From: an uncultured Alphaproteobacteria bacterium
Lineage (GTDB): Bacteria > Pseudomonadota > Alphaproteobacteria > TMED127
Length of the DNA stretch: 13,291 nt
NCBI GenBank assembly: GCA_902567145.1
Contig: CACFLM010000020.1
Span: 1-13,291, forward strand
Direction of reading: 5' to 3'
The translations under genes were made by a program, and so were the position numbers. This document shows positions 1,076 to 13,291 of the stretch, piece by piece (the first letter of the stretch is position 1; every line of letters starts with the position of its first letter). A model generated the notes under the pieces. That model was not told the origin of the DNA, made no database searches, and saw nothing but the letters and a program-made list of their open reading frames with translations.

Positions 1076-1097
1076 TCAAAGTCTTTATTTTTTTAAA

Positions 1098-1889
1098 TTA
1101 ATAAAGGAGAAAATCTTTAAGTTGTTTTGTTGATGCACTAGAATAGGCAATAAAGGATCCATTTTTAAAATTTTCTTTTCCATAGCTTATCTCATTAAAC
1201 TTTTCATCAGTTACTTTACCATTAGCTGTTTTTAAGATTGCATGACCTGCAGCAATGTCCCATTCCATAGTATTTCCATATCTAAAATAGAAATTAGCTA
1301 TTCCTTCTGCAATTAAACAAAATTTAATAGATGACCCAACTTTTGTAATATTGTTTTTTTCTTTTTCAATAATTTTTGCAGTTTTATGATCTATATGTGA
1401 TCTACTAGCTACTATATTTGTGTTTAAAGGGTTTTTGTCACAACAAATTTTTTTTAACTTGTTATTTTTATTAATCTTGAAAGATTCTTTTCCATTTGAG
1501 AAATAACAAATATTCTTTGCGGGAATGTATATTACACCTAAGCACGGTTTAAAATTTTTCATAAATGCAATATTAACAGTAAATTCTCCATTTTTTTTGA
1601 TAAACTCTTTTGTTCCATCTAGAGGATCAACTAGAAAAAAATCAGGTGTTTGAATTTTTTTTTCTCTATTTTCTTCTGAAATTACTGAAATACCATTATA
1701 TTTTGTTTCGAGAAATTCAACGATTATCTTATTAGCTATTTCGTCAGCAATTGTGACTGGAGAATTATCCTCTTTAGTAGAAAATTTAAAATCAGATTTA
1801 TAAATCTTCATAATCTCTTTTGAAGCCAATTTAGAAATATTAATTAAATCATTTGTTAATTTCTCGTAATCATTTCTTTGAATGTTCAT
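1098..1889 (-). CDS. cysQ: 3'(2'),5'-bisphosphate nucleotidase CysQ
   Basis: This is a 263-aa inositol-monophosphatase-superfamily enzyme that hydrolyses 3'-phosphoadenosine 5'-phosphate (PAP) to AMP. PAP comes from sulfate activation or from phosphopantetheine transfer to acyl carrier protein. The metal-binding signature is complete: SEE at 71-73, the run around VDPLDGTKEF (87-96) typical of CysQ, and EWDIAAGHA at 209-217, plus Asp49 in PVTIADE. Its length is normal for CysQ. The start is ambiguous. A TTG four codons upstream (1899-1901) would overlap the acuI stop as TTGA, but the ATG at 1889 is preferred; neither has a strong Shine-Dalgarno sequence. It lies directly behind acuI, almost certainly cotranscribed. 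Confidence 0.9.
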   Translation of the reverse strand: MNIQRNDYEKLTNDLINISKLASKEIMKIYKSDFKFSTKEDNSPVTIADEIANKIIVEFLETKYNGISVISEENREKKIQTPDFFLVDPLDGTKEFIKKNGEFTVNIAFMKNFKPCLGVIYIPAKNICYFSNGKESFKINKNNKLKKICCDKNPLNTNIVASRSHIDHKTAKIIEKEKNNITKVGSSIKFCLIAEGIANFYFRYGNTMEWDIAAGHAILKTANGKVTDEKFNEISYGKENFKNGSFIAYSSASTKQLKDFLLY

Positions 1890-1897
1890 TTTACCAA

Positions 1898-2872
1898 TCA
1901 ATCTACTTTTATAATTGTTCTACCTTTTATTTTACCTTGAAGGATTTTTTTGGAAATTTTTTTTAAATCATTTAAATTGCCAGAGTTCTTTATTTCTTTC
2001 ACAATACTAAAATCTAGATATTTTACTAAAAAGTTCCATGCGTTTAACCTTTTTCTATAAGACGCGTAGACACAATCAATACCTGATAGAGTGATATTTC
2101 TTAAAATAAACGGATAAACTGTGGTATTTAGAAGGTGACTTTTTGCTAAACCAGTAGAGACAACTATTCCATTATACTTTATTTCAGTTAAAATGGTTGA
2201 TAAAATATCTCCTCCAACCGTATCTAATGCTCCTGACCATTTCTCTCTTGATAAAGGGTTAGTAGAATATTTAAAATCTTCTCTTTTGAGAATGTTTTCT
2301 GCACCTAATTTCTTTAAGTATAGTGAACCTTTATTTGTTAAAGCTGTTACTGAATACCCTAGTTTAGATAATAAATTTACTGCTATAGAACCTACTCCAC
2401 CCGATGATCCTGTAACAATAATATTCCCATTTGAAGGCTTTATCTTAGAAATAATCTCTTTAACACATAATGCAGCTGTATAGCCAGCAGCACCAATAAT
2501 CATTGATTGTTCTAATGAAATTTTTTTTGGAAGGTGTATTAACCAATCACCATTTACTCTCGCAAACTGAGAAAAACCTCCGTAATGCCTTTCGCCAATT
2601 CCCCAACCATTGCAGACAACTTTATCGCCTTTTGTAAATCTTTTGTGAGAGGATTCAACCACAACCCCAGCAAAATCCGCCCCTGGAATCATTGGATATC
2701 TTTTTATAATCGGAGCCTTATTTAAAATAGCAAGACCATCTTTATAATTAAAACTACTAAACATAACTTTAACTAATACATTACCCTCCATTAATTGATC
2801 AAATGATATTGATTTAATAGAACCCATTTTTGGAGAGCTCATTAAAAATGCTTTAAATAATTCGGTTTTCAT
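1898..2872 (-). CDS. acuI: Acrylyl-CoA reductase (NADPH), AcuI/YhdH family
   Basis: A 324-aa zinc-free medium-chain dehydrogenase/reductase of the YhdH/YhfP group. Diagnostic blocks in order: FNYKDGLA (41-48), MIPGADFAG (61-69), WGIGERHYGG (90-99), the NADPH-binding glycine loop TGSSGGVG (154-161), LDTVGG (216-221), YPFILRN (253-259) and KGRTIIK (316-322). Known family members reduce acrylyl-CoA to propionyl-CoA. In marine bacteria that detoxifies the acrylate arising from dimethylsulfoniopropionate breakdown; no other DMSP gene is in this window, so that role is inferred. Length is full. A TATAAT element lies 22-27 bp upstream of the ATG, next to an inverted repeat. Its stop is at or next to the cysQ start. 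Confidence 0.9.
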   Translation of the reverse strand: MKTELFKAFLMSSPKMGSIKSISFDQLMEGNVLVKVMFSSFNYKDGLAILNKAPIIKRYPMIPGADFAGVVVESSHKRFTKGDKVVCNGWGIGERHYGGFSQFARVNGDWLIHLPKKISLEQSMIIGAAGYTAALCVKEIISKIKPSNGNIIVTGSSGGVGSIAVNLLSKLGYSVTALTNKGSLYLKKLGAENILKREDFKYSTNPLSREKWSGALDTVGGDILSTILTEIKYNGIVVSTGLAKSHLLNTTVYPFILRNITLSGIDCVYASYRKRLNAWNFLVKYLDFSIVKEIKNSGNLNDLKKISKKILQGKIKGRTIIKVD

Positions 2873-2893
2873 AATTAAATCTTAATTTTATCT

Positions 2894-2929
2894 ATTATAA
2901 CATTATTTAATAATTCATCATTAAATAAT
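2894..2929 (-). promoter_or_regulatory. acuI promoter with overlapping inverted repeat
   Basis: On the minus strand a perfect TATAAT (2899-2894) lies 21 bp before the acuI ATG, giving a short leader. Just upstream, 2902-2911 and 2920-2929 form a perfect 10-bp inverted repeat (ATTATTTAAT, 8-nt loop, ATTAAATAAT) across the spacer and -35 region. It could be an operator; acuI genes elsewhere are controlled by repressors such as AcuR. It could instead be a weak AT hairpin ending the upstream TPR transcript. The sequence also resembles half a Zur box but the second half is absent. Confidence 0.4.
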
Positions 2930-2977
2930 AATGAACGGGATCGTGTCTTAATTTAAATAATTTAATTAGCAAAAAAG

Positions 2978-4342
2978 CTAAGGTTTGTGTAAGTGATTTT
3001 CAAATAAAATTGGGAGACATAAAGGTGAAAGGTGAACACTATCACACATATGAAGGTTATTATTTTCTCCGTTTTTGTTAGAGGTCAAATCATAAACATC
3101 AAAGAAGTATGAACCTCTAGATAAAACCTCTTTTTTTAAAATCAAATTATATATCTTAATTGTTTCAATCCTCTTAATATCTAACTCATCTTGCAACCCT
3201 TTTTTCATGGTTGGAGCTGGAATGCCAAAATAATATTTTTTTAAAAATTTGTTAGAGATAGTGTTCTCTATATGATTTAAATAACCTTTTATTGTTCTTT
3301 CACATACTTCTGAAATTTTTCTATTTTTCTTGATTGTATAAGAAAGTATACCTTGATCTTTTCTACAATCTATTTCTCCAAAAGAGATAAATATTTCATC
3401 GCTTAAAGTTTTACTTTTCATTTGTTGAAATAAAGAATCTTTCCAGTGATTATTTTTATTGTTTGCAAAATGCCAAGCTTTGGCACCAGTTATCAGAACT
3501 GGTTGAATTTGTTTTTCTTTTGAAGATATAGTTAGAGTCTGATGTGCAAAAGAAAGACAATGACTTTCTCCAATATGAAGTATTTTTTTTGAATCACAAT
3601 TTTGCTTATCTTTTTTAAGTTGAGGGTATAATGAAGAAATAAATCTTGAGAAAATCAATGAATGTTTTTTCGTCTTTTCATTTTTGATAGTGTTGAATGC
3701 GCCTTGATTTATTAATTCATTAGTTTTATTTAAATTCAATAAGGTTCCTGAAAAGTCTCCTTGCAATAGATTAGCAATCGTTAATTGTAATGTTGCAATT
3801 AGCTTATCACCTTGAGTGATTGAATTTAATTTAAGAGTAGATTTCAATAAAAGTATCACTTCTTCTATTTTACCAAGATCTGAAAGTATGGTTCCTAAAT
3901 TGTAATATGCCTCTATTAAATCATCTTTCAGTTCAATTGCTTTACGCGTTGATATTTCTGCATCATGTAATTTGCCAGAATCTTTCAATATTGTCCCTAG
4001 ATTGTAATGTGCCTCTGCTAAATCAGGTTTTAGTTCAATTGCTTTGCGCATTGATATTTCTGCTTCAGATAACTTACCAAGACCTCTTAGTATTATTCCT
4101 AGATTATTATGTGCGTTTATATTATTAGGTTTTAGTTCAACTGCTTTACGAACTAATATTGCCGCCTCATTTAATTTTCCATGATTTTTTAAAATTAGAC
4201 CAAAATTAGAAAAAACTCTATGATCATTGTAACCTTGATTGATGCAAAATTGATAAAGTTTAACGGCTTCTGAGATATTCCCTTGTATACTGAATTGTAA
4301 TGCTTGATTAATTATTTGATCTTTAGTTAGTTTTTCAATCAT
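2978..4342 (-). CDS. TPR-repeat protein with C-terminal SGNH-like domain
   Basis: This 454-aa protein has two parts. Residues ~7-176 are tandem 34-residue tetratricopeptide repeats, the clearest at 41-74, 75-108, 109-142 and 143-176, with the repeated core YNLGTILxxxGKLxxAExxxRKAIELK. Residues ~250-454 look like an SGNH-type hydrolase fold: HIGESHC (256-262, candidate Ser260), ISFGEID (319-325) and DSVH (434-437, a possible Asp-His dyad) shortly before the C-terminus. SGNH proteins are esterases or carbohydrate O-acyl transferases/hydrolases; the substrate here is unknown. There is no signal peptide, so it is probably cytoplasmic. Similar TPR fusions often sit in surface-polysaccharide regions, which would fit the LPS-type transferase further along, but that is inference. 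A TATATAAAT sequence about 30 bp upstream may be its -10 element. Confidence 0.75.
   Translation of the reverse strand: MIEKLTKDQIINQALQFSIQGNISEAVKLYQFCINQGYNDHRVFSNFGLILKNHGKLNEAAILVRKAVELKPNNINAHNNLGIILRGLGKLSEAEISMRKAIELKPDLAEAHYNLGTILKDSGKLHDAEISTRKAIELKDDLIEAYYNLGTILSDLGKIEEVILLLKSTLKLNSITQGDKLIATLQLTIANLLQGDFSGTLLNLNKTNELINQGAFNTIKNEKTKKHSLIFSRFISSLYPQLKKDKQNCDSKKILHIGESHCLSFAHQTLTISSKEKQIQPVLITGAKAWHFANNKNNHWKDSLFQQMKSKTLSDEIFISFGEIDCRKDQGILSYTIKKNRKISEVCERTIKGYLNHIENTISNKFLKKYYFGIPAPTMKKGLQDELDIKRIETIKIYNLILKKEVLSRGSYFFDVYDLTSNKNGENNNLHMCDSVHLSPLCLPILFENHLHKP
3856..4214 (-). repeat. 102-bp tandem DNA repeat coding for TPR units
   Basis: Units starting at 3909, 4011 and 4113 have an exact 102-bp period (3 x 34 codons), with a further partial unit on the low-coordinate side. 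The first two units are similar at the nucleotide level (shared TTCAATTGCTTT-CGC and GATATTTCTGC), so the array probably grew by recent duplication and may vary in copy number between strains. Confidence 0.8.
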
Positions 4343-4528
4343 AGCAAGTTTAACCTTTAAGAGTTATTTATATATCATTTTTCCATGATTCATATATCTT
4401 CTAAACTCGCTCTTACATAATAATAATTTGAGAATAAATAATTCTAAAAAGAATTTCAATAAAATTTTCTAAAGTTGAAATCTTATAGATTTTGTTATAG
4501 TTTCTTGAATTGAAATGAATAGTTTTTT

Positions 4529-4553
4529 ATATCTTTCTTTTAATGAAAGATAT
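4529..4553. other. Perfect 9-bp inverted repeat upstream of tRNA-Ser
   Basis: ATATCTTTC (4529-4537) and GAAAGATAT (4545-4553) flank a 7-nt TTTTAAT loop. It lies in the 291-bp gap between the divergent TPR gene and the tRNA. It lacks a T-run on either strand, so it is not a classic terminator. The rest of 4343-4633 holds no gene; a GATAAT at 4587-4592 is a weak candidate -10 box for the tRNA. Confidence 0.35.
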
Positions 4554-4633
4554 GCGATTTTAGAGTTAAGTAGAGAATAATTAGTAGATAATATTAAGAA
4601 ACACTATTTTCTGAAACGCACACTCAAAATGAC

Positions 4634-4723
4634 GGAGAGATGGCAGAGTGGTCGAATGCACCGGTCTTGAAAACCGGCAAGGATGCAAGTCCTTCCAGGG
4701 TTCGAATCCCTGTCTCTCCGCCA
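4634..4723 (+). tRNA. tRNA-Ser (anticodon UGA)
   Basis: A complete cloverleaf. The acceptor arms are GGAGAGA (4634-4640) and TCTCTCC (4713-4719), with G73 at 4720 and an encoded CCA at 4721-4723. The anticodon stem CCGGT/ACCGG encloses the loop CTTGAAA with anticodon TGA at 4668-4670. A long variable arm, AAGGATGCAAGTCCTT, marks it as class II (Ser). The T-arm is CAGGG-TTCGAAT-CCCTG. It decodes UCA and related Ser codons. Its 3' end is the attachment site of the downstream cassette array: the last part of the gene recurs three more times, while the gene itself is intact. Confidence 0.97.
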
Positions 4724-4840
4724 CTATCTGAAAGCCCCATAATCTGTGTGCTTTAGAGTCTTGATTTTGTCGTTTTACCCCCCAAGATTACCCCCCATGA
4801 ATATATTAACTCGGGGGAGGAAAAATACCCCGGCTTGTTT
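4707..4840 (+). repeat. att repeat copy 1 (tRNA 3' end plus left-end block)
   Basis: The 23-bp core 4707-4729 (tRNA 3' end plus CTATCT) is identical in all four copies. The block that follows has AAGCCCC, TTTAGAG, then two ACCCCCC motifs at 4777 and 4790, 13 bp apart. A third ACCCC lies at 4827 within a CGGGG...CCCCG hairpin near the end of the block. The spaced direct repeats look like recombinase arm-type sites (inference). Confidence 0.85.
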
Positions 4841-5714
4841 AATTAGAATTATTAAATTCTCTTATGAATTGTTTTAAATTTTGTTTATCAACTAATTCAC
4901 AGTATATTACATCTGATTCCAAGTTTTCTTCTTTGTTTCTTCCAATATGCCAGTAGGTAGCACTTAAATCTTCTCTGTTAATATTAACTCTTTCATTACC
5001 TCTTCTATCCATAAAGAAAGTCAAAATTATTTCATCCCAAGTTGTTGTGAATTCTCCTTCACCTTCAATTGAATTCATTACATTGAAGTAAACGAAATTG
5101 TTTTTATCCTTAAGTTCAAAACCAAAAATATCATATGGTTTTTTGAAGAGACAGAAAAACTGTTTTTTTGAATTTAAGAGCTTTAAATCTTTTTCATTAC
5201 GAATTGCTTCAGATACTTCTTCACATTTTCTTTTGTTTTTATCATCATTTAATTTATCCCATCCAATATCGTTTACATTGCATTCTTTATATAATTTTCC
5301 CCTGTTCCATAAACCTTCTTTAACAAACCATTTATAGGGCTCCTCGGTATCCCCAATGTAAAGTCTTTCGAATAACTTTCCTTCACCCTGTTTTAAACTA
5401 TTTCTATACTCTCCTTGATAATCTAAAGTTCTATACATTTCTTGATCACCTATTGGAAAAATTTTATAAGAAATTCCATATGAACCACCGTAGGCTTTAC
5501 CCTTATACCATTTTCCTCTAAAAAACATCCCATCTTCTAGTGTTCCTTCTCCTATACAATTATTCCATTTATTTTGCGGAATTTCATTATTACAACTTTC
5601 TGTAAGTAAAATATCAAAATTTAATTTTGAAATAATAAATATACCTAGTGAAATAATTATTAGATAAATAACAACTAAAGATAAGAATTCCTTTGGATTT
5701 TTTTTAACAATCAT
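4839..5714 (-). CDS. Single-pass membrane protein with MORN-like repeats
   Basis: A 291-aa protein of unknown function. The start at 5714 is chosen because its ATG overlaps the upstream stop as ATGA; an in-frame start at 5756 would lie inside the previous gene. Residues ~10-29 form one strongly hydrophobic segment (signal anchor). The rest is soluble, with weak MORN-type units: GEGTLEDGMFFRGKWYKGK (55-73) and YQGEYRNSLKQGEGKLF (99-115). MORN repeats in other proteins bind lipids or protein partners. The C-terminal half is rich in charged residues and has no motif I recognise. It is the second gene of cassette A and ends at the conserved left-end block. The pairing with a nuclease-like protein hints at a two-component function, which is unproven. 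Confidence 0.7.
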   Translation of the reverse strand: MIVKKNPKEFLSLVVIYLIIISLGIFIISKLNFDILLTESCNNEIPQNKWNNCIGEGTLEDGMFFRGKWYKGKAYGGSYGISYKIFPIGDQEMYRTLDYQGEYRNSLKQGEGKLFERLYIGDTEEPYKWFVKEGLWNRGKLYKECNVNDIGWDKLNDDKNKRKCEEVSEAIRNEKDLKLLNSKKQFFCLFKKPYDIFGFELKDKNNFVYFNVMNSIEGEGEFTTTWDEIILTFFMDRRGNERVNINREDLSATYWHIGRNKEENLESDVIYCELVDKQNLKQFIREFNNSN

Positions 5715-6241
5715 GTTTTTATTATATGCCAAGCATTCTTGTATTTGTCTAACCATCCGTCTTGATATTCATTGAGGAAATCTCTGTCTTGGTTGTTTAA
5801 AAATTTATCAAAGGATTCTTTTGCAAAATTTGAATAATCTCTTTGTAACTTTCTCATTGTACTATCATTATGCTTTTGACCTTTTAATCCAGGCAACTTT
5901 AACCATAGACTATGAGAAGTTTTTAAAGCCTTGGATATCTTGTTTGAATCAACCACATAGATCTCTGACTTATCATTTTCTAAATCCATTTTAACTAAAC
6001 AAAAAAATAGATTTTTAATTGGTTTTTCATTTTTGTAAGACATTATCCAGTGATTATGTACTGTAGTTTTCACTTGAATAGGTGCTGAATCATTTCCATC
6101 CTTGTTGACTACAATTATGTCGTAGTCTTTTGTAAAGTCAGGAGTTTTGCCAGCTATAAAACCTTTCCTCAAAAGCATCGACAAAACAAGATGTTCACCA
6201 GAAGCACCTAGAACTGAGGATTGGATTTTAGTATTACTCAT
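5711..6241 (-). CDS. PD-(D/E)XK-like nuclease-fold protein
   Basis: A 176-aa protein with the restriction-endonuclease-like signature: Glu16 in LGASGEHLVLSMLL, Asp41 in DYDIIVVN and the QxK motif at PIQVKTT (Gln56, Lys58), followed by WIMS and IYVVDSNK. The C-terminal part KTSHSLWL...GQKHND...WLDKYKNAWHII resembles a family of small hypothetical proteins widespread in bacteria. Nuclease activity is inferred from the fold only. Its first six codons lie inside the right-end block shared with cassette C, and a promoter in that block would make the mRNA leaderless. It is the first gene of cassette A. Confidence 0.75.
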   Translation of the reverse strand: MSNTKIQSSVLGASGEHLVLSMLLRKGFIAGKTPDFTKDYDIIVVNKDGNDSAPIQVKTTVHNHWIMSYKNEKPIKNLFFCLVKMDLENDKSEIYVVDSNKISKALKTSHSLWLKLPGLKGQKHNDSTMRKLQRDYSNFAKESFDKFLNNQDRDFLNEYQDGWLDKYKNAWHIIKT

Positions 6242-6430
6242 TAAATCATAATAAATTATTAAACAGATGATTGTCTACTTAAAACCCTGGCCTTTTCCCT
6301 GTCTCTCCGCCACTATCTAGAAGCCCCGGATTCCCTGCTCCTTAGAGCCTTAATTCTCTAATTTTACCCCTAACTTTTACCCCTAAAAAATATTGTCCCG
6401 AGGGGAGGAAAAAATACTCAGTTTATTTTA
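6224..6430. repeat. att repeat copy 2 with right end of cassette A and left end of B
   Basis: 6224-6296 is the right end of cassette A and matches 12558-12630 at 69 of 73 positions. The identical core is at 6296-6318. The left-end block 6319-6430 is the most diverged copy: ACCCC motifs at 6366 and 6379 have lost two Cs each yet keep the exact 13-bp spacing. The outer GAGGGGAGGAAAAAATAC segment is recognisable. Confidence 0.85.
6248..6277 (-). promoter_or_regulatory. Putative leaderless promoter in right end of cassette A
   Basis: On the minus strand TAGACA (6277-6272), an 18-bp spacer and TATTAT (6253-6248) are followed by six bases and then the ATG at 6241. Transcription would start at or beside the A of the ATG. 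The same elements and spacing recur in cassette C. No Shine-Dalgarno sequence is visible. Inferred from sequence only. Confidence 0.45.
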
Positions 6431-6435
6431 TTTTT

Positions 6436-7470
6436 TTACACATGCCAAACTGTAACACCGCCTTGCCTATCCAATCCAGCAAGTGCTTTATCATCAGGTC
6501 GCCAATACAACTTTGAAACTGAATCACTCACACTAGTTTCACTTAATCCACTTTCTTCATTTTCAGATTTTAAGTCCCAAAGTACAACAGCACCATCCCT
6601 AGAACCTGAGGCCAGGTTCATTCCACGATGTGCAAAAGCAAGTGTGGTAATTGGTTTTGTGTGAAGTTTTAAGGATAAAGGAGATGTTCCTTCAGGCCCA
6701 TTACCTTTGAAACTCCAAACTGTTACCTCCTCACTTCCCCCTGTAGCCAAGTAACTTCCAGTTTCATCAAAAGATAAAGCTGAGGGTTTTAGTGGATACC
6801 CAGACATCATTGAATCTTGTTCTGTGGATCTACGCCAAAAATGAATTGTATTATCTTGGCTTCCACAAACGACTATGTCACTATTTGGGCTTAAGACCAT
6901 TGAAACCAGCGACCCCTTCCACTCTAATTTCTGTTTTACTTTTCCTGACATACCATCGAAAAAGGAAACACGACCGTAGCAAGTTGTAGCTAGTTCTTTA
7001 TTAATAGACCACCCTAAATTGCTGACGGTACTGTTATGATTATTAGATTTCCATATTTCATTACCCTCTTTAGTGTAAACATAAACTGTTCGAGAGCATG
7101 AAACCGCCAACATTTCACCATCATGTGACCACGACAAGTTTTCTATCCAACCATCACCTAAATCAATGATTTTTTCTCTTTTTTTTTGATGAGTATTCCA
7201 AATAATAATTTTTCCATCCTGTCCTCCTGTTGCAAACCTATCAGTTAATGGGTTAATTGCAGTTGAGAGAATACCACCTTCATGAACTTTCCCTTGGGAC
7301 CATATCACTTCACCAGATTTACCATCAAAGACATATACGCCTCCTGCTGCATCACAAATTATGAGAGCTTCACCATTGTAATTCCAACCTCCAGAAATAG
7401 CATAGTCATTTACATAGGCGTTCCATCCACTTCTGAGAATTTTTTGAGGTTGTGTTTCCATTATACTCAT
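6436..7470 (-). CDS. WD40 beta-propeller protein
   Basis: A 344-aa protein made almost wholly of WD40 repeats (seven or eight blades). Typical strand ends are FATGGQDGKIIIWN (79-92), VVCGSQDNTIHFW (200-212), LATGGSEEVTVW (241-252), LASGSRDGAVVLWD (286-299) and GGVTVWHV at the C-terminus. There is no signal peptide or membrane segment, so it is cytoplasmic. WD40 propellers are protein-interaction platforms; the partner is probably the COG0523 GTPase encoded just upstream, whose stop overlaps this start as ATGA (7467-7470). A GAGGA sequence 10-14 bp upstream of ATG 7470 supports that start. It is the last gene of the Zur-box operon. The zinc role is inferred from context; WD40 proteins have no intrinsic zinc function. 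Confidence 0.9.
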   Translation of the reverse strand: MSIMETQPQKILRSGWNAYVNDYAISGGWNYNGEALIICDAAGGVYVFDGKSGEVIWSQGKVHEGGILSTAINPLTDRFATGGQDGKIIIWNTHQKKREKIIDLGDGWIENLSWSHDGEMLAVSCSRTVYVYTKEGNEIWKSNNHNSTVSNLGWSINKELATTCYGRVSFFDGMSGKVKQKLEWKGSLVSMVLSPNSDIVVCGSQDNTIHFWRRSTEQDSMMSGYPLKPSALSFDETGSYLATGGSEEVTVWSFKGNGPEGTSPLSLKLHTKPITTLAFAHRGMNLASGSRDGAVVLWDLKSENEESGLSETSVSDSVSKLYWRPDDKALAGLDRQGGVTVWHV

Positions 7471-8819
7471 ACAAGACAGTCCTCAAAACCTTTAAGCATT
7501 TCCTTCTCGTCAAGGTTGCGTCCAATAAATACAAGCTGATTACGTCGGGGTAAACTTCCCCAAGGACGATCTGGTTTTCCACTAAAAATCATGTGAACGC
7601 CCTGAAAAACAAATCTATTTGATTCTCCAGCAATACTAAGAAAACCTTTCATACGAAAAATATCTACTCCTTTTTCCCTAAGGAGTTTTGAAATCCAAGC
7701 CTGCAGTTTTTGTTCATCCAAATCTCCATCCTTTTCAATTGAAAAAGAACCAACTTCATCATCATGTTCGTGTTGTGCTACCCATGTTCTTTCTATTTCA
7801 ACTGGAACCTCATCATTATTATCTACTTCAATTAACTTCATATTAAACTCTTCTGCAGTGTGTTGAGCAAAAAGACCTATTTTTGTATCTTTCTCAATTT
7901 CTATATTAAATTCTTTTTGACCTGAGGATTCAAGGTTTAGGTTAACATGTTTGCCTTTAGGAATTATCTCTCCTGGTTTAATTGTCTCGGCATCTTCAGC
8001 GTAAAGGCGAACACAACGCTCAGCACCATTTCTTAAACTTAAATCATCTGTATTTTGACCAAGCTCTACAACGAGAGACATAGAAGGATCAGGCCCTTCA
8101 GACATGATGATTTTATATTTACCAGATTTAGTTGGATAAATTCCCGTCCATTCAAATGGATATTCTGGTTCTAAAAATGTAGGACGACGAATAAGAGCCT
8201 GATCTAAATTAAACGCACTTTTATCAAGAACAGAGTTAATTGGAACATTGGCCATTTCACTCCTAATAAATTTTGCCATTTTGTTCATTTCTCGAAGTCG
8301 AGCTTCTAACTTATCCAATTCTGTGTCTTTTACTAGATCTGTCTTATTAAGAACAATAACATCGGCGAATGCAATTTGTTCTGTACTTTCATCACTTCTA
8401 CCAAGTTGTTGGTTTATATGAAATGTATCAACAAGAGTTATAATTCCATCAAGAGAAAACTCTGAACTTATCTCATCATCCATAAAAAAAGTTTGAGCCA
8501 CTGGACCTGGATCTGCAAGACCAGTAGTTTCTACTACTACGTAATCAAATTTATCACGTCTTTTCATTAGGTTTCCTAGCACCCTAATTAAATCACCACG
8601 GACTGTGCAACAAATACAACCGTTGGCCATTTCAAATATCTCTTCCTCTGCATTTATTACAAGAGCCTGATCAATACCAACTTCTCCAAATTCGTTTTCA
8701 ATCACAGCTATTCGTTTTCCGTGTTGTTCGCTTAAGATACGATTTAGTAAAGTTGTTTTACCTGAACCAAGAAAGCCAGTTAGAATGGTTACAGGAACCT
8801 TATTAGATGAAATATCCAT
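7467..8819 (-). CDS. COG0523 G3E GTPase (CobW-type metallochaperone), long form
   Basis: A 450-aa CobW-type GTPase. Walker A is GFLGSGKTT (15-23), the metal site is CxCC in NGCICC (Cys68, 70, 71), the Walker B region is DYVVVETTG (92-100) and the guanine motif is NKTD (158-161). The C-terminal CobW domain runs from about HEHDDEVGS (350-358) to the end. Residues ~215-345 are an extra beta-rich insert (EYPFEWTGIYP..., LFAQHTAEEF) absent from short CobW proteins. COG0523 proteins handle metals, often zinc, moving it with GTP hydrolysis to client enzymes in the cytoplasm. The start at 8819 is chosen because GGAGAAG sits six bases upstream; an ATG at 8831 lacks this. It overlaps the DUF1289 gene by 17 bp and lies behind a Zur box, so zinc-repressed expression is likely. 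Confidence 0.93.
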   Translation of the reverse strand: MDISSNKVPVTILTGFLGSGKTTLLNRILSEQHGKRIAVIENEFGEVGIDQALVINAEEEIFEMANGCICCTVRGDLIRVLGNLMKRRDKFDYVVVETTGLADPGPVAQTFFMDDEISSEFSLDGIITLVDTFHINQQLGRSDESTEQIAFADVIVLNKTDLVKDTELDKLEARLREMNKMAKFIRSEMANVPINSVLDKSAFNLDQALIRRPTFLEPEYPFEWTGIYPTKSGKYKIIMSEGPDPSMSLVVELGQNTDDLSLRNGAERCVRLYAEDAETIKPGEIIPKGKHVNLNLESSGQKEFNIEIEKDTKIGLFAQHTAEEFNMKLIEVDNNDEVPVEIERTWVAQHEHDDEVGSFSIEKDGDLDEQKLQAWISKLLREKGVDIFRMKGFLSIAGESNRFVFQGVHMIFSGKPDRPWGSLPRRNQLVFIGRNLDEKEMLKGFEDCLV

Positions 8820-9000
8820 TATCTTCTCCATTTAAAATTGTCATTCTTTTTTCTAGATCTTTGCGAAGTATTGTAATTGCATATGGTTTCATATTTTTCC
8901 ATTTTCTACACTCATCACGTGTTCTGCCACAACCGATACACCATGAGTTTTTTCCTGTAAACTGACAAATGTCAATACAAGGACTCTTATTACGTTTCAT
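8803..9000 (-). CDS. DUF1289 cysteine-rich small protein
   Basis: A 65-aa protein with the DUF1289 pattern: SPCIDIC (6-12), WCIGCGRT (20-27) and EC..W (30-34). The family is mostly proteobacterial, and its clustered Cys residues are thought to bind a metal or Fe-S centre; no reaction is established. There are five Cys in the first half and a basic C-terminal half. It is the first gene of the minus-strand operon, 17 bp overlapping the GTPase gene. The Zur box lies 30-48 bp upstream of its ATG. Possible roles include a small metal-binding partner of the GTPase; this is inference. Confidence 0.85.
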   Translation of the reverse strand: MKRNKSPCIDICQFTGKNSWCIGCGRTRDECRKWKNMKPYAITILRKDLEKRMTILNGEDNGYFI

Positions 9001-9029
9001 AAGTTAAGCTCTAAAATTATTTTATTATT

Positions 9030-9048
9030 GAAATGTTATAATATAACA
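9030..9048. promoter_or_regulatory. Zur box 1 (divergent promoter region)
   Basis: GAAATGTTATAATATAACA contains a perfect 7-1-7 palindrome, TGTTATA-A-TATAACA (9034-9048), matching the proteobacterial Zur operator except that the outer right arm has decayed. It contains a TATAAT (9037-9042) and lies between the DUF1289-GTPase-WD40 operon and the membrane-protein gene, so one site may control both directions. Zn-loaded Zur would repress. Confidence 0.8.
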
Positions 9049-9107
9049 GATAATATAGACAATTTAAACATAATTATCAACACAACTTCAAGTAATTTAG
9101 GGACAAA

Positions 9108-9464
9108 ATGGATTTAATTATTGAAAATCTTTTAGGCCAAGCAGGCGGAAATTTCAAAGGACTTATTTTTGGTTTTGTTCACGTTGCGATAATGATTATA
9201 GGTTATTACACTGGTTTTAGCATAAATAAATTTTTAAAGATTCTTTCAAATGGCTATGTTGCTGGTATATTCGGCATAGTTTTGTCACATATTATTGCAG
9301 ATATAATTGCTTGCTATCTAGACCCAGATCTGAGAAAAATGATTTTTGGAGTAGTTATTGGTGGTATAATTCCTCTTTTTTTCATACCAATATTAGAGAA
9401 GTTTGTAGTAAAAAGTAAACAAAGTTTTTTAGATGAAGCAAAAGATGAGATAAATAGATCCTAA
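9108..9464 (+). CDS. Small three-helix membrane protein, Zur-linked
   Basis: A 118-aa hydrophobic protein of unrecognised family. Three membrane segments are likely at about 17-37, 50-70 and 77-97, with a charged C-terminal tail. Helix 2 has H61, D65 and C69 at i, i+4, i+8 spacing on one face (SHIIADIIACYLDPD), followed by D72 and D74; helix 1 carries H25. These are plausible metal ligands in or near the membrane. AGGGA six to ten bases before the ATG supports this start. It follows Zur box 1 and precedes Zur box 2, so it is probably expressed under zinc shortage. It could help zinc uptake or be an accessory to a transporter; no known transporter signature is present. A 6-bp hairpin (9455-9471) spans its stop codon. 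Confidence 0.75.
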   Translation: MDLIIENLLGQAGGNFKGLIFGFVHVAIMIIGYYTGFSINKFLKILSNGYVAGIFGIVLSHIIADIIACYLDPDLRKMIFGVVIGGIIPLFFIPILEKFVVKSKQSFLDEAKDEINRS

Positions 9465-9492
9465 AGATCTATCATTAATTTAAAACATTGTT

Positions 9493-9511
9493 GAAATGTT
9501 ATATTATAACA
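9493..9511. promoter_or_regulatory. Zur box 2 (upstream of second GTPase)
   Basis: GAAATGTTATATTATAACA differs from box 1 only at the central base. The 7-1-7 palindrome TGTTATA-T-TATAACA spans 9497-9511. It lies 54-72 bp before the ATG of the second COG0523 GTPase, giving that gene its own zinc-repressed promoter. Two near-identical operators within 470 bp make chance unlikely. Confidence 0.82.
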
Positions 9512-9564
9512 CTTAATATGTGTCTTTTAATTTTAACTTAATTAAATTTTGTGGAGAATTTATT

Positions 9565-10779
9565 ATGAAAGTTTTAGATAAAAAACTTCCAGTCACAGTA
9601 TTGTCGGGGTTCCTTGGTGCAGGTAAAACAACTCTTTTAAATCACATCCTTAACAATCGACAAGGTCTCAAGGTTGCAGTTATCGTAAACGATATGAGTG
9701 AAGTAAATATTGATGCTAATCTAGTAGAACGTGGTGGTGGTAACTTATCTCAAACTGAAGAGAAACTTGTAGAAATGAGTAATGGATGTATTTGCTGTAC
9801 TTTACGCGAAGATCTTTTGGTACAAGTTAGAGAATTAGCAACTGAAGATAAATTTGATTACCTACTTATAGAAAGTACTGGTATCTCCGAACCTTTACCA
9901 GTGGCAACTACTTTTGACTTTCGTGATGAGGATGGAGCAAGTTTATCCGATGTCGCAAAACTTGACACAATGGTAACTGTTGTAGATGCTGCAAATCTTA
10001 TTAAAAATTATAGCTCCACTGATTTTTTAAAAGATAAAGGAGAAAGTCTAGAAGATGATGAACGAACACTTGTTGATCTTCTTGTCGAACAAATTGAGTT
10101 TGCTAATGTAATTCTATTGAATAAGATTGACTTAATATCCTCTGAGGAATTAAAAACTGTTAAAGCAATTATAAGTGGGCTTAATACTGAGGCAAAAGTC
10201 TTTGAATGCTCACACTCCACTGTCAATCTAAAAGAAGTTATTGGTACCGGTTTGTTTGATCTTAAACAAGCTCATACTCATCCTTTGTGGGCAAAAGAAC
10301 TCTATAACTTTAAAGATCATGTTCCAGAAACAGAAGAGTATGGGATTACAAGTTTTGTATATTTAGCCCGTGAACCATTTGATCCATCAAAAATTCATAA
10401 TTTTTTTAATCAAGAATGGCCAGGTGTAATTAGATCTAAAGGCTTTTTTTGGATTTCAAGTCGACCTGAATTTATTGGTGAAGTTTCTCAGGCAGGTGCA
10501 TTTGTTCGTCATCAGGGAATTGGTAGGTGGTGGACGACTGTACCTAAAGATCGTTGGCCAGAGGGACCTGATTTTGATGCGTTAATGGATAAATATTGGA
10601 ATAAAGATTTTGGTGACCGTCGACAAGAAATTGTTTTTATAGGTTTAAAATCTGAGATGGATGAAAAGAATATTCGTCAGAGACTGGATGCTTGTTTGAT
10701 AAAGAACTATCTTGAAGATCCCAATTCATATCATAAAGCCCTTGATCCCTTCCCGTTATGGTTTCAGAAAGTAGCTTAA
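9565..10779 (+). CDS. COG0523 G3E GTPase, ZigA/YciC-like zinc chaperone
   Basis: A 404-aa CobW-type GTPase distinct from the one at 7467. Walker A is GFLGAGKTT (15-23), the CxCC metal site is CICC (75-78), the Walker B region is DYLLIESTG (98-106) and the guanine motif is NKID (186-189). HTHP (237-240) ends the GTPase part. The C-terminal domain contains the block [20 protein letters not shown] (291-310) and [12 protein letters not shown] (321-332), typical of the Zur-regulated ZigA/YciC subgroup that supplies zinc to essential enzymes in low zinc. The start at 9565 follows GGAG with proper spacing; an upstream in-frame ATG at 9520 would encode an atypical extension. Zur box 2 lies upstream. 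The gene ends 22 bp before att copy 3. Confidence 0.93.
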
Positions 10780-10900
10780 ATTAGAATAAAACCTGGTCTT
10801 TTCCCTGTCTCTCCGCCACTATCTGACAGCCCCTGATTCCCTACACTTTAGAGCCTTGATTTTGTAATTTTACCCCCCAAGATTACCCCCCATAAATAGT
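10780..10900. repeat. att repeat copy 3
   Basis: A short right-end piece of cassette B (AAAACCTGG-CTTTTCCCTG) leads into the core at 10802-10824. The left-end block of cassette C follows, with ACCCCCC at 10872 and 10885, again 13 bp apart. Similarity to copies 1 and 4 stops after CCCCCCATAAATA, so the outer GGGGGAGGAAAAATACCCC part is missing here. Confidence 0.85.
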
Positions 10901-10964
10901 GTTTGTACAATGAGCATGAAAACATAAATTCAATGGTGAGGGTAATAAAGTGGCTAAAATATAT

Positions 10965-12119
10965 TTAGGTTATTTTTTTTAAAAATTCTTTTATATTTTT
11001 ATCAATAAAAATTACATCTTCTTGAGATGTTAATGCCGTTGACATTCCTCCAGCCAAGTGTCCATGTTTTGTGTTAATAACAACCAGTTCCGCTTCTGGC
11101 ATTTCATTAACCTCAGGAATATTATTTCTAGCTGGAAAAGATAAATCAGTTGAACTAGGCATAACTAGAGCTGGACATTTAATATTCGCAAGAGCTTCTT
11201 TAGTGTTGTTATTAAATTTTTGATGTTTTCCAATATCTCCCATTTGCCATGTATTCAACATACCTAATAAATCATTGGCATCGACACTTCCAAAAAAAGC
11301 ATCCATATAATCTAAGTATGACTCAGTATCTTCAAATCCATCAAATAAATTGAGATGTAAACCCTCCTCATATCCTTCCTTATCAAATAAGGTTGATGTA
11401 TAATTTCTAGAAAAAGCTTTTAAACCCTTTTTAGGAGGTGAAATGTAATCTCCATTATTATAATTAACATCTGATTGCAAAGCTAACTTACATCCTTCTA
11501 AAGTTATCCAATTTTGTGTTGTAGTTTTTGCGGTTCCACATAAGGGAATAATACCACCGGTCTTATCTGCATGTAACGCACCCCAGTGAAAAGCCTGCTG
11601 CGCACCCATAGAAAACCCAATATACATCAGCGGATTAGTTATACCAAAATATTCTGATATTAATTTATCTTGAGCATTTATATTGTCATAATATGTAATG
11701 GAGGGAAATCTCGGGCCATCTTGAGTGGGAGCAGTATTACTTGGGGAAGATGAATGACCACTACAAAATAAATTTGGTGTTATAATGCAATATTTTAATG
11801 GGTTTATAGCTCTATCAATTCCATATGCCATTTGATTAAATTTGTGACTTCCCGCAAAACATGTGGCAAATATAATTGCATTACTTTTTGAAGAATTTAA
11901 TTCGCCATTAACATCAACTAACAAAAATGCATTTTTTAAAGTTTCTCCACTTTGAAGCTTAAAATTTTCTAATGGAAATTTAAATGTTTTACTCTTCCAA
12001 GGTAGCTTTTTTTTATCTTCAGATAAATTTACTTTTGGAAAAAGATTAATCATAGATAAATAAGTCATAGCAATTGCTTTAACTGAATAATCAAAAAATT
12101 TTCTTCTATCTAAATCCAT
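10965..12119 (-). CDS. Alpha/beta hydrolase, MetX-like, with Tat-type N-terminus
   Basis: A 384-aa alpha/beta-fold protein of the homoserine-acetyltransferase-like group. The N-terminus MDLDRRKFF followed by a modestly hydrophobic stretch (12-28) looks like a twin-arginine signal, so export to the periplasm is likely. Catalytic elements: nucleophile elbow GFSMG (168-172, Ser170), Asp325 in SSTDLSFP, and His352 or His354 in KHGHLAGG. The block GHSSSPSN...GPRFPSITYYDN (121-146) is characteristic of this subgroup. True MetX enzymes are cytoplasmic and act on homoserine; the signal and divergent sequence suggest a different ester or acyl substrate, unknown here. It follows the small membrane-protein gene by 20 bp in the same transcription unit and ends at the left end of cassette C. 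Confidence 0.85.
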   Translation of the reverse strand: MDLDRRKFFDYSVKAIAMTYLSMINLFPKVNLSEDKKKLPWKSKTFKFPLENFKLQSGETLKNAFLLVDVNGELNSSKSNAIIFATCFAGSHKFNQMAYGIDRAINPLKYCIITPNLFCSGHSSSPSNTAPTQDGPRFPSITYYDNINAQDKLISEYFGITNPLMYIGFSMGAQQAFHWGALHADKTGGIIPLCGTAKTTTQNWITLEGCKLALQSDVNYNNGDYISPPKKGLKAFSRNYTSTLFDKEGYEEGLHLNLFDGFEDTESYLDYMDAFFGSVDANDLLGMLNTWQMGDIGKHQKFNNNTKEALANIKCPALVMPSSTDLSFPARNNIPEVNEMPEAELVVINTKHGHLAGGMSTALTSQEDVIFIDKNIKEFLKKIT

Positions 12120-12139
12120 AAATTTATAGGTTCAATTAT

Positions 12140-12532
12140 TCATATTTTAAAAAGTAAATCCCAACCAGTAATAAGCACCATTAAGTTTAAGAATGCTATT
12201 AAAGCAGGGGCAACGTACCCTTCAGCAGATGTCTTTACACCGTCAACAGAACCCCAATAACTATGGATGGTTTGAAAGCAAACAACTGCCCCGATACATG
12301 CTTGCACAAAACCATAGACAAACAGTAACCAAGCGCCTTCGATAGAAGTGAGCAAAGCAATAGCTAGGGTGACTGCAAAGCCGGCAGCAAAAGTGCCAAC
12401 AAGTCTTGTCATAATTGCGCTGCCTTCACCAAAGCCATATTTCTCAATGTACTTGCGTGTTTGGAAAATACATTGATAAGCATAAATCAAATTTCCAAAT
12501 ATTATTAACGTTATGAGTGCAAAAATTAGCAT
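12140..12532 (-). CDS. Four-helix small membrane protein
   Basis: A 130-aa protein with likely membrane segments at 1-20, 42-62, 67-88 and 106-127 and a conserved-looking loop SYWGSVDGVKTSAEGYVAPA (91-110). I do not recognise the family. It is more GC-rich than the hydrolase gene behind it, which hints at a separate origin. Its ATG lies one base after the stop of the 13-codon leader (TGAAATG), so translation is probably coupled to the leader. It may anchor or support the exported hydrolase; that is inference from the operon only. Confidence 0.75.
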   Translation of the reverse strand: MLIFALITLIIFGNLIYAYQCIFQTRKYIEKYGFGEGSAIMTRLVGTFAAGFAVTLAIALLTSIEGAWLLFVYGFVQACIGAVVCFQTIHSYWGSVDGVKTSAEGYVAPALIAFLNLMVLITGWDLLFKI

Positions 12533-12533
12533 T

Positions 12534-12575
12534 TCAGTTAACCTCTCTAACCCTCTCGATTTTAATATTACTCAT
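12534..12575 (-). CDS. Putative 13-aa leader peptide / 5' gene relic
   Basis: ATG at 12575 encodes MSNIKIERVREVN and stops one base before the membrane-protein ATG. The first six codons are homologous to the start MSNTKI of the cassette A gene. Either it is a relic of the same start joined to new cargo, or a functional leader that delivers ribosomes to a downstream gene that lacks its own Shine-Dalgarno sequence. Confidence 0.5.
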   Translation of the reverse strand: MSNIKIERVREVN

Positions 12576-12764
12576 TAAATCATAATAAATTATTGAACAG
12601 ATGGTTGTCTACTTAAAATCCTGGCCTTTTCCCTGTCTCTCCGCCACTATCTGAAAGCCCCTAATTCCCTACTCTTTAGAGCCTTGATTTTGTAATTTTA
12701 CCCCCCAAGATTACCCCCCATAAATAATTAGACCCGGGGGAGGAAAAATACCCCAGCTTGTTTT
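12558..12764. repeat. att repeat copy 4 with right end of cassette C
   Basis: The right-end block is at 12558-12630, the core at 12630-12652 and a full left-end block at 12653-12764, with ACCCCCC at 12700 and 12713 (13 bp apart) and the outer GGGGGAGGAAAAATACCCC segment. It closely resembles copy 1. It marks the start of a fourth unit or of the original chromosome. The stretch 12576-12801 holds no gene apart from this repeat. Confidence 0.85.
12582..12611 (-). promoter_or_regulatory. Putative leaderless promoter in right end of cassette C
   Basis: On the minus strand TAGACA (12611-12606), an 18-bp spacer and TATTAT (12587-12582) stand six bases before ATG 12575. Sequence and spacing match the cassette A copy. 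Inferred only. Confidence 0.45.
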
Positions 12765-12801: not shown

Positions 12802-13291
12802 ATGGTTAGTTTGAAAAGAGATAGTAAGGGAAATCTTAAAGTTGCAACAGGTATTAGATCTAGACAAAGCTCTATTTATAAACCTGGACAAAATGAGGTA
12901 TTTAAAATTAGTCGTTCTAAATTTTCTAATTTTATGGATTGCAAACGCTGTTTTTACCTTGATAGAGTCAAGGGTCTTCAAGAACCTGGAATACCTGGTT
13001 GGGCCTTGAATACAACAGTAGATGATTTGTTAAAAAAAGAATTTGATTATTATCGGAAGAAAAAAGAACCACACCCAATTTTTTATGAATATAACTTAAA
13101 TTTCATTCCTTTCGATCACAAAAATATCAATACTTGGAGAAATAGTTTAAGTGGAGGAATTACTTATTTAGATAAAGATACAAATATTATTCTGCATGGA
13201 GGAGTAGATGATGTTTGGCTTAATTTAGATACTCAAGAAATTATTGTATGTGATTATAAAGCGCAATCAACGTCTTATGAAGTTGAGAAAG
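12802..13291 (+). CDS. PD-(D/E)XK nuclease family protein (RecB/Cas4-like), partial
   Basis: The frame opens at ATG 12802 and is still open at the right edge (163 codons). FKISRSKFSNFMDCKRCFYLDR (34-55) has the CxxC typical of RecB/AddB/Cas4-like nucleases. HGGVDDVW (132-139) supplies His132 and Asp136/137, and VCDYKAQ (149-155) supplies the D-x-K pair (Asp151, Lys153). This order is the RecB-type PD-(D/E)XK active site. Such enzymes act on DNA ends in repair, recombination or defence. Unlike most genes in the array it points away from the tRNA. It may be cargo of a fourth cassette or the first chromosomal gene beyond the array. No clear ribosome binding site precedes it. Confidence 0.85.
   Translation, partial: MVSLKRDSKGNLKVATGIRSRQSSIYKPGQNEVFKISRSKFSNFMDCKRCFYLDRVKGLQEPGIPGWALNTTVDDLLKKEFDYYRKKKEPHPIFYEYNLNFIPFDHKNINTWRNSLSGGITYLDKDTNIILHGGVDDVWLNLDTQEIIVCDYKAQSTSYEVEK

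What the first reader, a model, noticed from the sequence alone, without database searches (positions are those of the whole stretch)
4634..12764. Tandem array of three cassettes delimited by repeats of the tRNA-Ser 3' end
The exact 23-bp tRNA-Ser end is present at 4707, 6296, 10802 and 12630, each followed by a related left-end block. Between them are three gene sets with unrelated functions. This is the pattern of repeated site-specific integration at one tRNA, leaving an ordered stack of small cargo units. It recalls tRNA-targeted satellites and the tycheposons of marine picocyanobacteria, but here the units are only 1.6-4.5 kb and stacked directly.
Basis: partly seen in the sequence, partly recalled or inferred. 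Interest (0 to 1): 0.9.

Follow-up and report, generated by a model that had tools for sequence, protein, structure and literature searches.

The report
tRNA-anchored stack of swappable gene cassettes
In a widespread, uncultured group of ocean bacteria, one serine-tRNA gene serves as a docking site where small gene cassettes, nearly all without a recombinase gene of their own, have been stacked, swapped between species and sometimes fused.

Summary
Confirmed and extended. The 23-bp repeat is exact at 4707, 6296, 10802 and 12630 (0 in 200 shuffles), each followed by a ~110-bp block. A core-plus-block pattern hits 6 stretches in genome contigs, all from one family, the marine methylotrophs TMED127/Methylaequorales. 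Of 14 family genomes whose contig continues past this tRNA-Ser, 12 have at least one gene-bearing core-to-core unit; one has eight in a row. Whole units recur in other species at other positions, with breakpoints at the core. The window's ZigA gene is 94-97% identical at fourfold sites to 6 of 10 other species, where a flanking gene is 21-50%, so units move horizontally. Units are small (median 1.4 kb of 41); many share a left block with tandem TTACCCC-type repeats and a right end CCTGGYCTTT. Only 1 of 41 holds an integrase gene: a DUF6538-type tyrosine integrase, found at tRNA-Ser in 3 of 32 genomes, whose element at the sister tRNA-Ser(GGA) has an exact empty site elsewhere. Best reading: integrase-less cassettes moved in trans, as in tandem CIME accretion. 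Precedents: Dehalococcoides, Methylopumilus, Actinomarinales. Small standardised units and fusion make it a new variant. Excision, the partner integrase and the vehicle are unproven.

The parts
4634..4723 (+). intact tRNA-Ser(TGA), the anchor and putative attB
   Evidence: ARAGORN; Rfam RF00005 61.5 bits (4634-4720)
4707..4729 (+). core copy 1 (last 17 nt of the tRNA plus CTATCT)
4730..4840 (+). left block of unit 1 (type A); tandem TTACCCCCC repeats at 4775-4794
4707..6295 (+). unit 1 (1589 bp), no integrase found; right end CCTGGCCTTT at 6286-6295
4839..5756 (-). 305-aa protein, no Pfam/NCBIfam/PHROG match, alone in its cluster among the compared loci
5711..6241 (-). 176-aa protein, only weak PHROG matches of unknown function, alone in its cluster
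6296..6318 (+). core copy 2
6319..6429 (+). left block of unit 2 (TTACCCCTAACTTTTACCCC repeats at 6364-6383)
6296..10801 (+). unit 2 (4506 bp): WD40 + CobW + DUF1289 + 118 aa joined to a ZigA cassette; the same unit (4505 bp) is in G027 between other neighbours
6436..7470 (-). WD40 repeat protein, 344 aa
   Evidence: PF00400
7467..8831 (-). CobW-family GTPase, 454 aa
   Evidence: PF02492/PF07683
8803..9000 (-). DUF1289 protein, 65 aa
   Evidence: PF06945
9108..9464 (+). 118-aa protein, no family match
9479..9490 (.). approximate junction of two cassettes that are separate elsewhere; core and left block are absent here, a decayed remnant is present at this place in G012
9565..10779 (+). ZigA-like GTPase, 404 aa
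   Evidence: NF038288 591.7 bits, just under its cut-off of 600
10802..10824 (+). core copy 3
10825..10935 (+). left block of unit 3 (repeats at 10870-10889)
10802..12629 (+). unit 3 (1828 bp): MetX-like cassette joined to a 130-aa-protein cassette (junction near 12131)
10965..12119 (-). MetX-like alpha/beta hydrolase, 384 aa
   Evidence: PF00561; PRK07581 325.5 bits (cut-off 332)
12140..12532 (-). 130-aa protein, no family match; its cluster has 16 members in the compared loci, this one included
12630..12652 (+). core copy 4
12653..12763 (+). left block of unit 4 (repeats at 12698-12717)
12802..13291 (+). start of unit 4: gene cut by the window end; same cluster as a PD-(D/E)XK nuclease of G029
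   Evidence: clusters; PF12705 on the G029 member; no Pfam match on the fragment itself

Best explanation
The window shows a stack of small mobile cassettes at the 3' end of an intact tRNA-Ser gene. A tyrosine integrase that recognises the last ~17 bp of tRNA-Ser, most likely of the DUF6538 + Phage_integrase type and supplied in trans by an occasional autonomous element, inserts cassettes there. Each insertion regenerates the tRNA, places the cassette's own left block next to it and pushes the previous core copy to the right, so that successive insertions build an ordered array (CIME-type accretion). Cassettes are exchanged between species as whole units. Later, inner cores decay or are deleted, joining neighbouring cassettes into larger units. 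Shown by sequence: the array, shared whole units, breakpoints at cores, transfer between species, joined units, integrase elements with the same kind of core, and an empty site for such an element at the sister tRNA-Ser(GGA). Inferred: that this integrase moves the cassettes, that they excise, the order of events, and how they travel between cells.
For: Exact cores and blocks. 12 of 14 family genomes with a continuing contig carry gene-bearing core-to-core units. Of 251 distinct alignment-end positions at >=90% identity, 95 fall at an internal core against 8.8 +/- 5.4 for shifted cores, largest 32, none of 1000 reaching it. Of 36 directed whole-unit matches, 18 (nine pairs) have cores at both ends in both genomes, e.g. 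window 6296-10801 = G027, 96%. ZigA fourfold-site identity is 94-97% for window versus G001, G002, G004, G005, G015 and G027, against 21-50% for flank gene c2; versus G006, G011, G012 and G014 it is 66-84% against 34-40%. Arm-like tandem repeats (2 mismatches allowed) follow 40 of 62 cores, all 40 starting 48-56 nt behind the 17-bp core, against 158 of 4000 random 120-bp windows. Type A units end in CCTGGYCTTT (2 mismatches allowed) in 15 of 24 cases, background 16 of 20000. Integrase elements sit at tRNA-Ser in 3 of 32 genomes, with core copies at both ends and similar repeats in both arms. G011 has the empty site at tRNA-Ser(GGA).
Against: The tRNA-Ser integrase was not found in 29 of 32 genomes, though these assemblies are incomplete. 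The right ends of the three integrase elements (..GGACAA before the core) differ from the CCTGGYCTTT of many type A units, so the partner of type A may be another integrase. 18 of 36 whole-unit matches lack a recognisable core at one or both ends in the second genome, and 22 of 62 cores lack the repeats. No excised circle or within-species presence/absence was tested. Left blocks do not always travel cleanly with their cargo: G002's block looks mosaic, which points to some homologous recombination. No overall gradient of sharing with distance from the tRNA was seen (Spearman about 0 over 195 genes). One unit-bearing place, G004 C5, has no tRNA-Ser in the 14.5 kb fetched.
Confidence: 0.82

Rival explanations
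1. The units are exchanged mainly by homologous recombination between the ~130-bp repeats (core plus left block); an integrase played a part only in the distant past.
For: The repeats are 70-87% alike over 134 bp in the window; G002's tRNA-adjacent block resembles the window's first block in its 5' part and ZigA-type blocks further on, read by eye; two units in the window are joined units that lost a core.
Against: Homologous recombination explains swapping and loss but not the first insertion beside an intact tRNA, the repeat position near +51, the right-end motif against the core, or the integrase elements with an exact empty site at the sister tRNA. Type A and type B blocks differ apart from core and repeats, yet occur in one array, e.g. 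G003 and G005.
Confidence: 0.12
2. The array is the eroded remains of several full-size integrative elements or prophages that each lost its integrase after insertion (ordinary decay to CIMEs), with no dedicated cassette format.
For: This is the standard route to CIMEs (review PMC5704250, passages); one 9.6-kb integrase-bearing element is present in the G029 array.
Against: Units are compact: 26 of 34 units of 900 bp or more have a coding fraction of 0.80 or more, the other 8 have 0.52-0.78 (my count). Many share left block and right end across unrelated cargo, and they travel between species in small form (ZigA unit 1415-1416 bp in G001, G002, G004 and G005). Apart from the integrase, no phage-type gene was seen among 29 further representatives, not an exhaustive scan.
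Confidence: 0.25
3. The units are tycheposons or phage satellites of the known kind.
For: tRNA anchor, marine streamlined host (PMC12542740, passages), apparent dependence on a helper (inference).
Against: No recombinase, primase or packaging family among the window proteins scanned; two of three complete units under 4 kb; no exact match to the core-block, left-block or right-end patterns in viral contigs and no close integrase relative there.
Confidence: 0.06
4. Assembly artefact or plain tandem duplication of the tRNA end.
For: G012 has two 166-bp units that look like plain tandem copies of the tRNA end.
Against: The same organisation recurs in separately assembled genomes with different cargo; the units in the window carry different genes.
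Confidence: 0.02

Closest known systems
Tandem ssrA genomic islands of Dehalococcoides (PMC3146451, passages read)
   Same: Multiple tandem islands bounded by an RNA gene or a 20-bp repeat of its 3' end; 15 islands without an integration module, proposed there to be cis-mobilizable elements mobilised by accretion; a distal region without repeats that looks fixed.
   Different: There a CcrB-like serine recombinase (DsiB) in a six-gene integration module, in 16 islands; here a tyrosine integrase with DUF6538, in 1 of 41 units, with units of median 1.4 kb and a shared block at the left end.
Additive flexible genomic island fGI-2 of Ca. Methylopumilus (PMC10872708, passages read)
   Same: [quoted passage not shown] variable size 330 bp-42 kb; 79-80% proteins of unknown function; streamlined aquatic methylotroph.
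   Different: Different tRNA and host class; the passages read do not describe a conserved att block, a partner integrase or joined cassettes.
tRNA-targeted gene cassettes in fGI1 of Ca. Actinomarinales (PMC7771536, passages read)
   Same: [quoted passage not shown] transfer between genera reported.
   Different: Five tRNAs inside one envelope island; the passages read do not describe an ordered stack on one tRNA with a common unit format.
ICE/IME/CIME tandem accretion (review PMC5704250, passages read)
   Same: Mechanistic frame: elements that lost integrase but keep attL/attR stack in tandem and can be moved with related elements.
   Different: Described there as decayed conjugative or mobilizable elements; no transfer gene was seen among the representatives scanned here.
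Integrons (features recalled, and as described in PMC4119200, passages)
   Same: Works like one: small cassettes without integrase, ordered at one site, apparently moved in trans.
   Different: No attC-like fold in the window's four sites, no integrase gene found in the window, the site is a tRNA; cassette genes point both ways (31 away from, 44 towards the tRNA, 41 units).

Membership tests
CIME tandem accretion at a tRNA gene | units bounded by att-like repeats of the tRNA 3' end, several in tandem | tested here: met
CIME tandem accretion at a tRNA gene | units lack integration genes | tested here: met
   Integrase in 1 of 41 units (PF00589 over 32 genomes; window proteins). Resolvase PF00239 in 2 of 32 genomes, neither in a unit; the G022 one lies about 280 bp before a tRNA-Ser-like match, not followed up
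CIME tandem accretion at a tRNA gene | units lack transfer genes | tested here: inconclusive
   no relaxase-type family among window proteins and 30 representatives scanned; not every unit gene was scanned
CIME tandem accretion at a tRNA gene | a related autonomous element with integrase uses the same site | tested here: met
   G029 at tRNA-Ser(TGA), G004 and G013 at tRNA-Ser(GGA); that it acts on the cassettes is untested
CIME tandem accretion at a tRNA gene | excision or mobilisation of the units demonstrated | not testable with these tools
   uncultured host; no reads
Additive flexible genomic island | same location across strains, content varies by presence/absence of cassettes at a tRNA | tested here: met
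   left flank genes c3-c2 recur while units differ, between species; strains of one species not compared
Integron | IntI-type integrase next to the array | tested here: not met
   no integrase in the window; the only integrase inside an array (G029) is DUF6538 + PF00589; IntI's own patch was not tested on it
Integron | attC sites that fold as single-stranded hairpins | tested here: not met
   core plus left block folds no better than shuffles: z 0.04, 0.05, 0.11, 1.14 for the window's four sites on the + strand, 0.28 for one on the - strand
Tycheposon | tRNA at the border | tested here: met
Tycheposon | tyrosine recombinase carried (as described in PMC10872708, passages) | tested here: not met
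   no recombinase among the window's proteins
Tycheposon | 4-200 kb (as described in PMC10872708, passages) | tested here: inconclusive
   two of the window's three units are 1.6 and 1.8 kb, the third 4.5 kb
Phage satellite | phage-related or packaging genes, helper phage | tested here: inconclusive
   PHROGs on six window proteins gave weak hits of unknown function and one weak esterase/lipase hit; no viral contig by exact patterns or integrase

The most novel reading that the evidence does not exclude
Methylaequorales possess an integron analogue built on a tRNA gene: a dedicated cassette format (110-bp left att block with arm repeats, CCTGGYCTTT right end) that captures one or a few genes of any function and is shuffled between species by a tRNA-Ser integrase acting in trans, with the array growing at the tRNA and older cassettes fusing into stable gene clusters behind it.
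Probability: 0.35. Interest if true: 0.78.

Novelty: new variant of a known kind. Interest (0 to 1): 0.57.

Why it matters
It gives a widespread streamlined marine methylotroph a plausible route for acquiring single genes or small gene sets (zinc-type GTPases, methionine-type enzymes, transporters, restriction and other defence-like genes) without an integrase gene in each unit. The shared unit format, the integrase elements with an exact empty site, and a visible series from separate cassettes through a decayed core to joined cassettes make the mechanism directly testable with synthetic DNA in E. coli.

Tried and rejected
Own genome: none held. Viral origin: the core-block, left-block and right-end patterns, exact matches only, gave 0 in viral contigs; the integrase found no close relative there; ZigA found three at 52-71% identity. 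The 4.5-kb unit matched 3 phage records over at most 12% of its length and 741 plasmid records, all at 60-80% identity and none over 80% of the unit; only the five best plasmid rows were seen. Serine recombinases: PF00239 in 2 of 32 genomes. The 380-aa integrase of six genomes was considered as the partner and rejected: its gene lies beside a tRNA-Thr end and TGGAGCCCC repeats. attC-like folding: not supported. Sharing against distance from the tRNA: overall Spearman about 0 over 195 genes; per genome mixed, e.g. -0.81 in G015 and +0.75 in G028. Only the weaker statement holds that singleton genes are commoner within 6 kb of the tRNA (20 of 75 against 9 of 120, Fisher p = 0.0004); I chose the 6-kb cut after seeing the bins. 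Core mismatches rise weakly with distance (rho 0.32, p 0.02, 52 cores). Left-block linkage to cargo: clear for ZigA in G004, G005 and G015, not for G001 and G002.

Limits: core calls allow up to 3 mismatches, so a few of the 64 cores may be false; the core/block rules were set after looking at the data; pairwise alignment ends are not independent, hence the collapsed count; the genomes are incomplete; ORFs come from a simple script of mine, and clusters from blastp linkage.
Full report
What is there. The 23-bp repeat is present exactly at 4707, 6296, 10802 and 12630 (0 in 200 shuffles). The first copy is the end of an intact tRNA-Ser(TGA), 4634-4723. Each copy is followed by a similar ~110-bp block. 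Unit sizes are 1589, 4506 and 1828 bp, and a fourth unit starts at 12630 and leaves the window. Genes: two proteins without a Pfam match in unit 1; WD40, CobW, DUF1289, a 118-aa protein and a ZigA-like GTPase in unit 2; a MetX-like hydrolase and a 130-aa protein in unit 3; in unit 4 the start of a gene of the same cluster as a PD-(D/E)XK nuclease. No recombinase family was found among them.

Who carries it. No genome is held for the window. The pattern TCTCCGCCACTATCTNNNAGCCC was found in 6 stretches of genome contigs, all titled uncultured Alphaproteobacteria, and all six genomes fall in one family. One of them, AG-892-F10, is a TMED127/Methylaequorales genome in PMC12542740 (search listing and passages; the terms tRNA, integrase and genomic island do not occur in its main text). 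I assign the group by that one genome. Within the family, 19 of 32 genomes match core plus block. A full-length match of 87% or more to the window's tRNA was found in 16 of 32 (my count). Two of those contigs stop 0 and 48 bp after the tRNA, as expected at a repeat. Of the 14 that continue, 12 have at least one core-to-core unit with a gene; G011 has none and G012 only two 166-bp tandem tRNA-end copies. G001 has eight units in a row. Of the 51 matches, 40 lie on the contig of that tRNA, one at tRNA-Ser(GGA) of G001, and ten on contigs with no match to the tRNA query (G004 C5, G008, G013, G021, G024, G032), mostly short contigs or contig ends.

Units move whole. Over 23 loci I cut 41 core-to-core units under 12 kb, median 1447 bp, 166-9590. 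Ends of pairwise alignments more than 200 bp past the tRNA fall at an internal core in 254 of 669 cases, against 35.7 +/- 18.4 (largest 101) when cores are shifted; at >=90% identity 171 of 329 against 20.2 +/- 12.8 (largest 83); collapsed to distinct positions 95 of 251 against 8.8 +/- 5.4 (largest 32). Of 36 directed whole-unit matches, 18 (nine pairs) have cores at both ends in both genomes. The window's unit 2 equals G027's unit (96% over 4530 bp) between different neighbours. The 1.4-kb ZigA unit is third in G001, first in G002 and G004, and second in G005. Fourfold sites of ZigA are 94-97% identical between the window and G001, G002, G004, G005, G015 and G027, where flank gene c2 gives 21-50%. 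Against G006, G011, G012 and G014 ZigA gives 66-84% and c2 34-40%. The nearest relative of the window by flank is G001 at 86% over 2.9 kb.

Units join. The WD40-CobW part of unit 2 is a separate 3.2-kb unit in G004 C5 (92%), and ZigA is a separate unit in G001, G002, G004 and G005. G012 still shows a decayed core and block between the two, while window and G027 have lost it, at a short shared TTGTTG (read by eye). The window's unit 3 joins a MetX part (94.6% to a unit of G032) and a 130-aa part (93% to a unit of G004).

Unit format. Tandem TTACCCC-type repeats, up to 2 mismatches, start 48-56 nt behind the 17-bp core in 40 of 62 cores examined; 158 of 4000 random 120-bp windows hold such a motif anywhere. 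Among 24 units with a type A block, 15 end in CCTGGYCTTT (up to 2 mismatches) directly before the next core; 1 of 7 type B, 0 of 2 type C and 3 of 8 unclassified units do; background 16 of 20000. The window's four sites do not fold above shuffles, so they are not attC-like. I read the repeats as arm-type integrase sites by analogy (recalled knowledge of tyrosine integrases).

Integrase. A family-wide search for PF00589 showed, besides many proteins of XerC/XerD size, several longer integrase groups. One is tied to tRNA-Ser: 414 aa in the G029 array, 411 and 417 aa near tRNA-Ser(GGA) of G004 and G013, 69-96% identical; the G029 protein has DUF6538 + Phage_integrase. It is in 3 of 32 genomes. 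Each such element is bounded by the 17-bp tRNA end (one mismatch in the distal copy of G013) and carries TTACCCC repeats in both arms. In G011 the tRNA-Ser(GGA) is followed directly by the sequence that in G004 lies behind the distal core (96.7% over 3 kb, starting inside the core), an exact empty site. A protein search gave 2248 homologues at E <= 1e-3; among the 120 listed, ten are full-length at 55% identity or more (my count).

Mechanism. The simplest account is site-specific insertion at the tRNA-Ser end by a trans-acting integrase of this type, with stepwise stacking and later decay. That the DUF6538 integrase serves type A units is inferred; their right end differs from that of the three integrase elements, so another integrase is possible. 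G002's mosaic-looking block suggests that homologous recombination also acts. The vehicle between cells is unknown; no viral contig was found.

Known kinds. Tandem islands bounded by RNA-gene ends, some without integrase, are described for Dehalococcoides (PMC3146451, passages); tRNA-Lys repeats in Methylopumilus (PMC10872708, passages); tRNA-targeted cassettes in Actinomarinales (PMC7771536, passages) and Alteromonas (PMC4119200, passages); the CIME concept in PMC5704250 (passages). PMC12416821 (passages) mentions tycheposons and tRNA-adjacent transfer but, in the passages shown, no array. My searches of the open library showed no paper on such arrays in TMED127; subscription papers are not held, and the original tycheposon paper was not seen. 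Hence a new variant of a known kind.

Noticed in passing
window 9024-9056 and 9487-9519: Two copies (88% alike) of a near-palindrome GAAATGTTATA(A/T)TATAACA, one between the leftward CobW-side genes and the 118-aa gene and one before ZigA; looks like a Zur-type box (motif recalled, not searched).
   Followed up: no
L033 (G004 C5) 7803-11001: A WD40-CobW unit with core copies lies near a contig end where no tRNA was found in the 14.5 kb fetched; either a distal part of the same island or a second site.
   Followed up: partly
L077, L079, L080, L059, L085, L078: A 375-380 aa integrase beside a tRNA-Thr end and TGGAGCCCC tandem repeats, in six genomes at 92-97% identity (the G009 copy is only 320 aa long).
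   Followed up: partly
L056/L081 and L061/L083/L084: Further integrase groups directly beside tRNA-Thr(TGT) (451 aa) and tRNA-Leu(GAG) (421 aa).
   Followed up: no
G022 C47 1538-1984: A serine resolvase-type gene about 280 bp before a tRNA-Ser-like match.
   Followed up: no
L051 (G012) 8913-9260: Two 166-bp tandem copies of the tRNA-Ser 3' part, apparently plain duplication.
   Followed up: no
L066 and L067: In G028 and G029 one unit ends in a nearly complete second tRNA-Ser copy.
   Followed up: no
window 3861-4166: Three 102-bp direct repeats inside a TPR protein gene.
   Followed up: no
window 12140-12532: A 130-aa protein without family match has 16 members among the compared loci, at varying positions in the island.
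   Followed up: no
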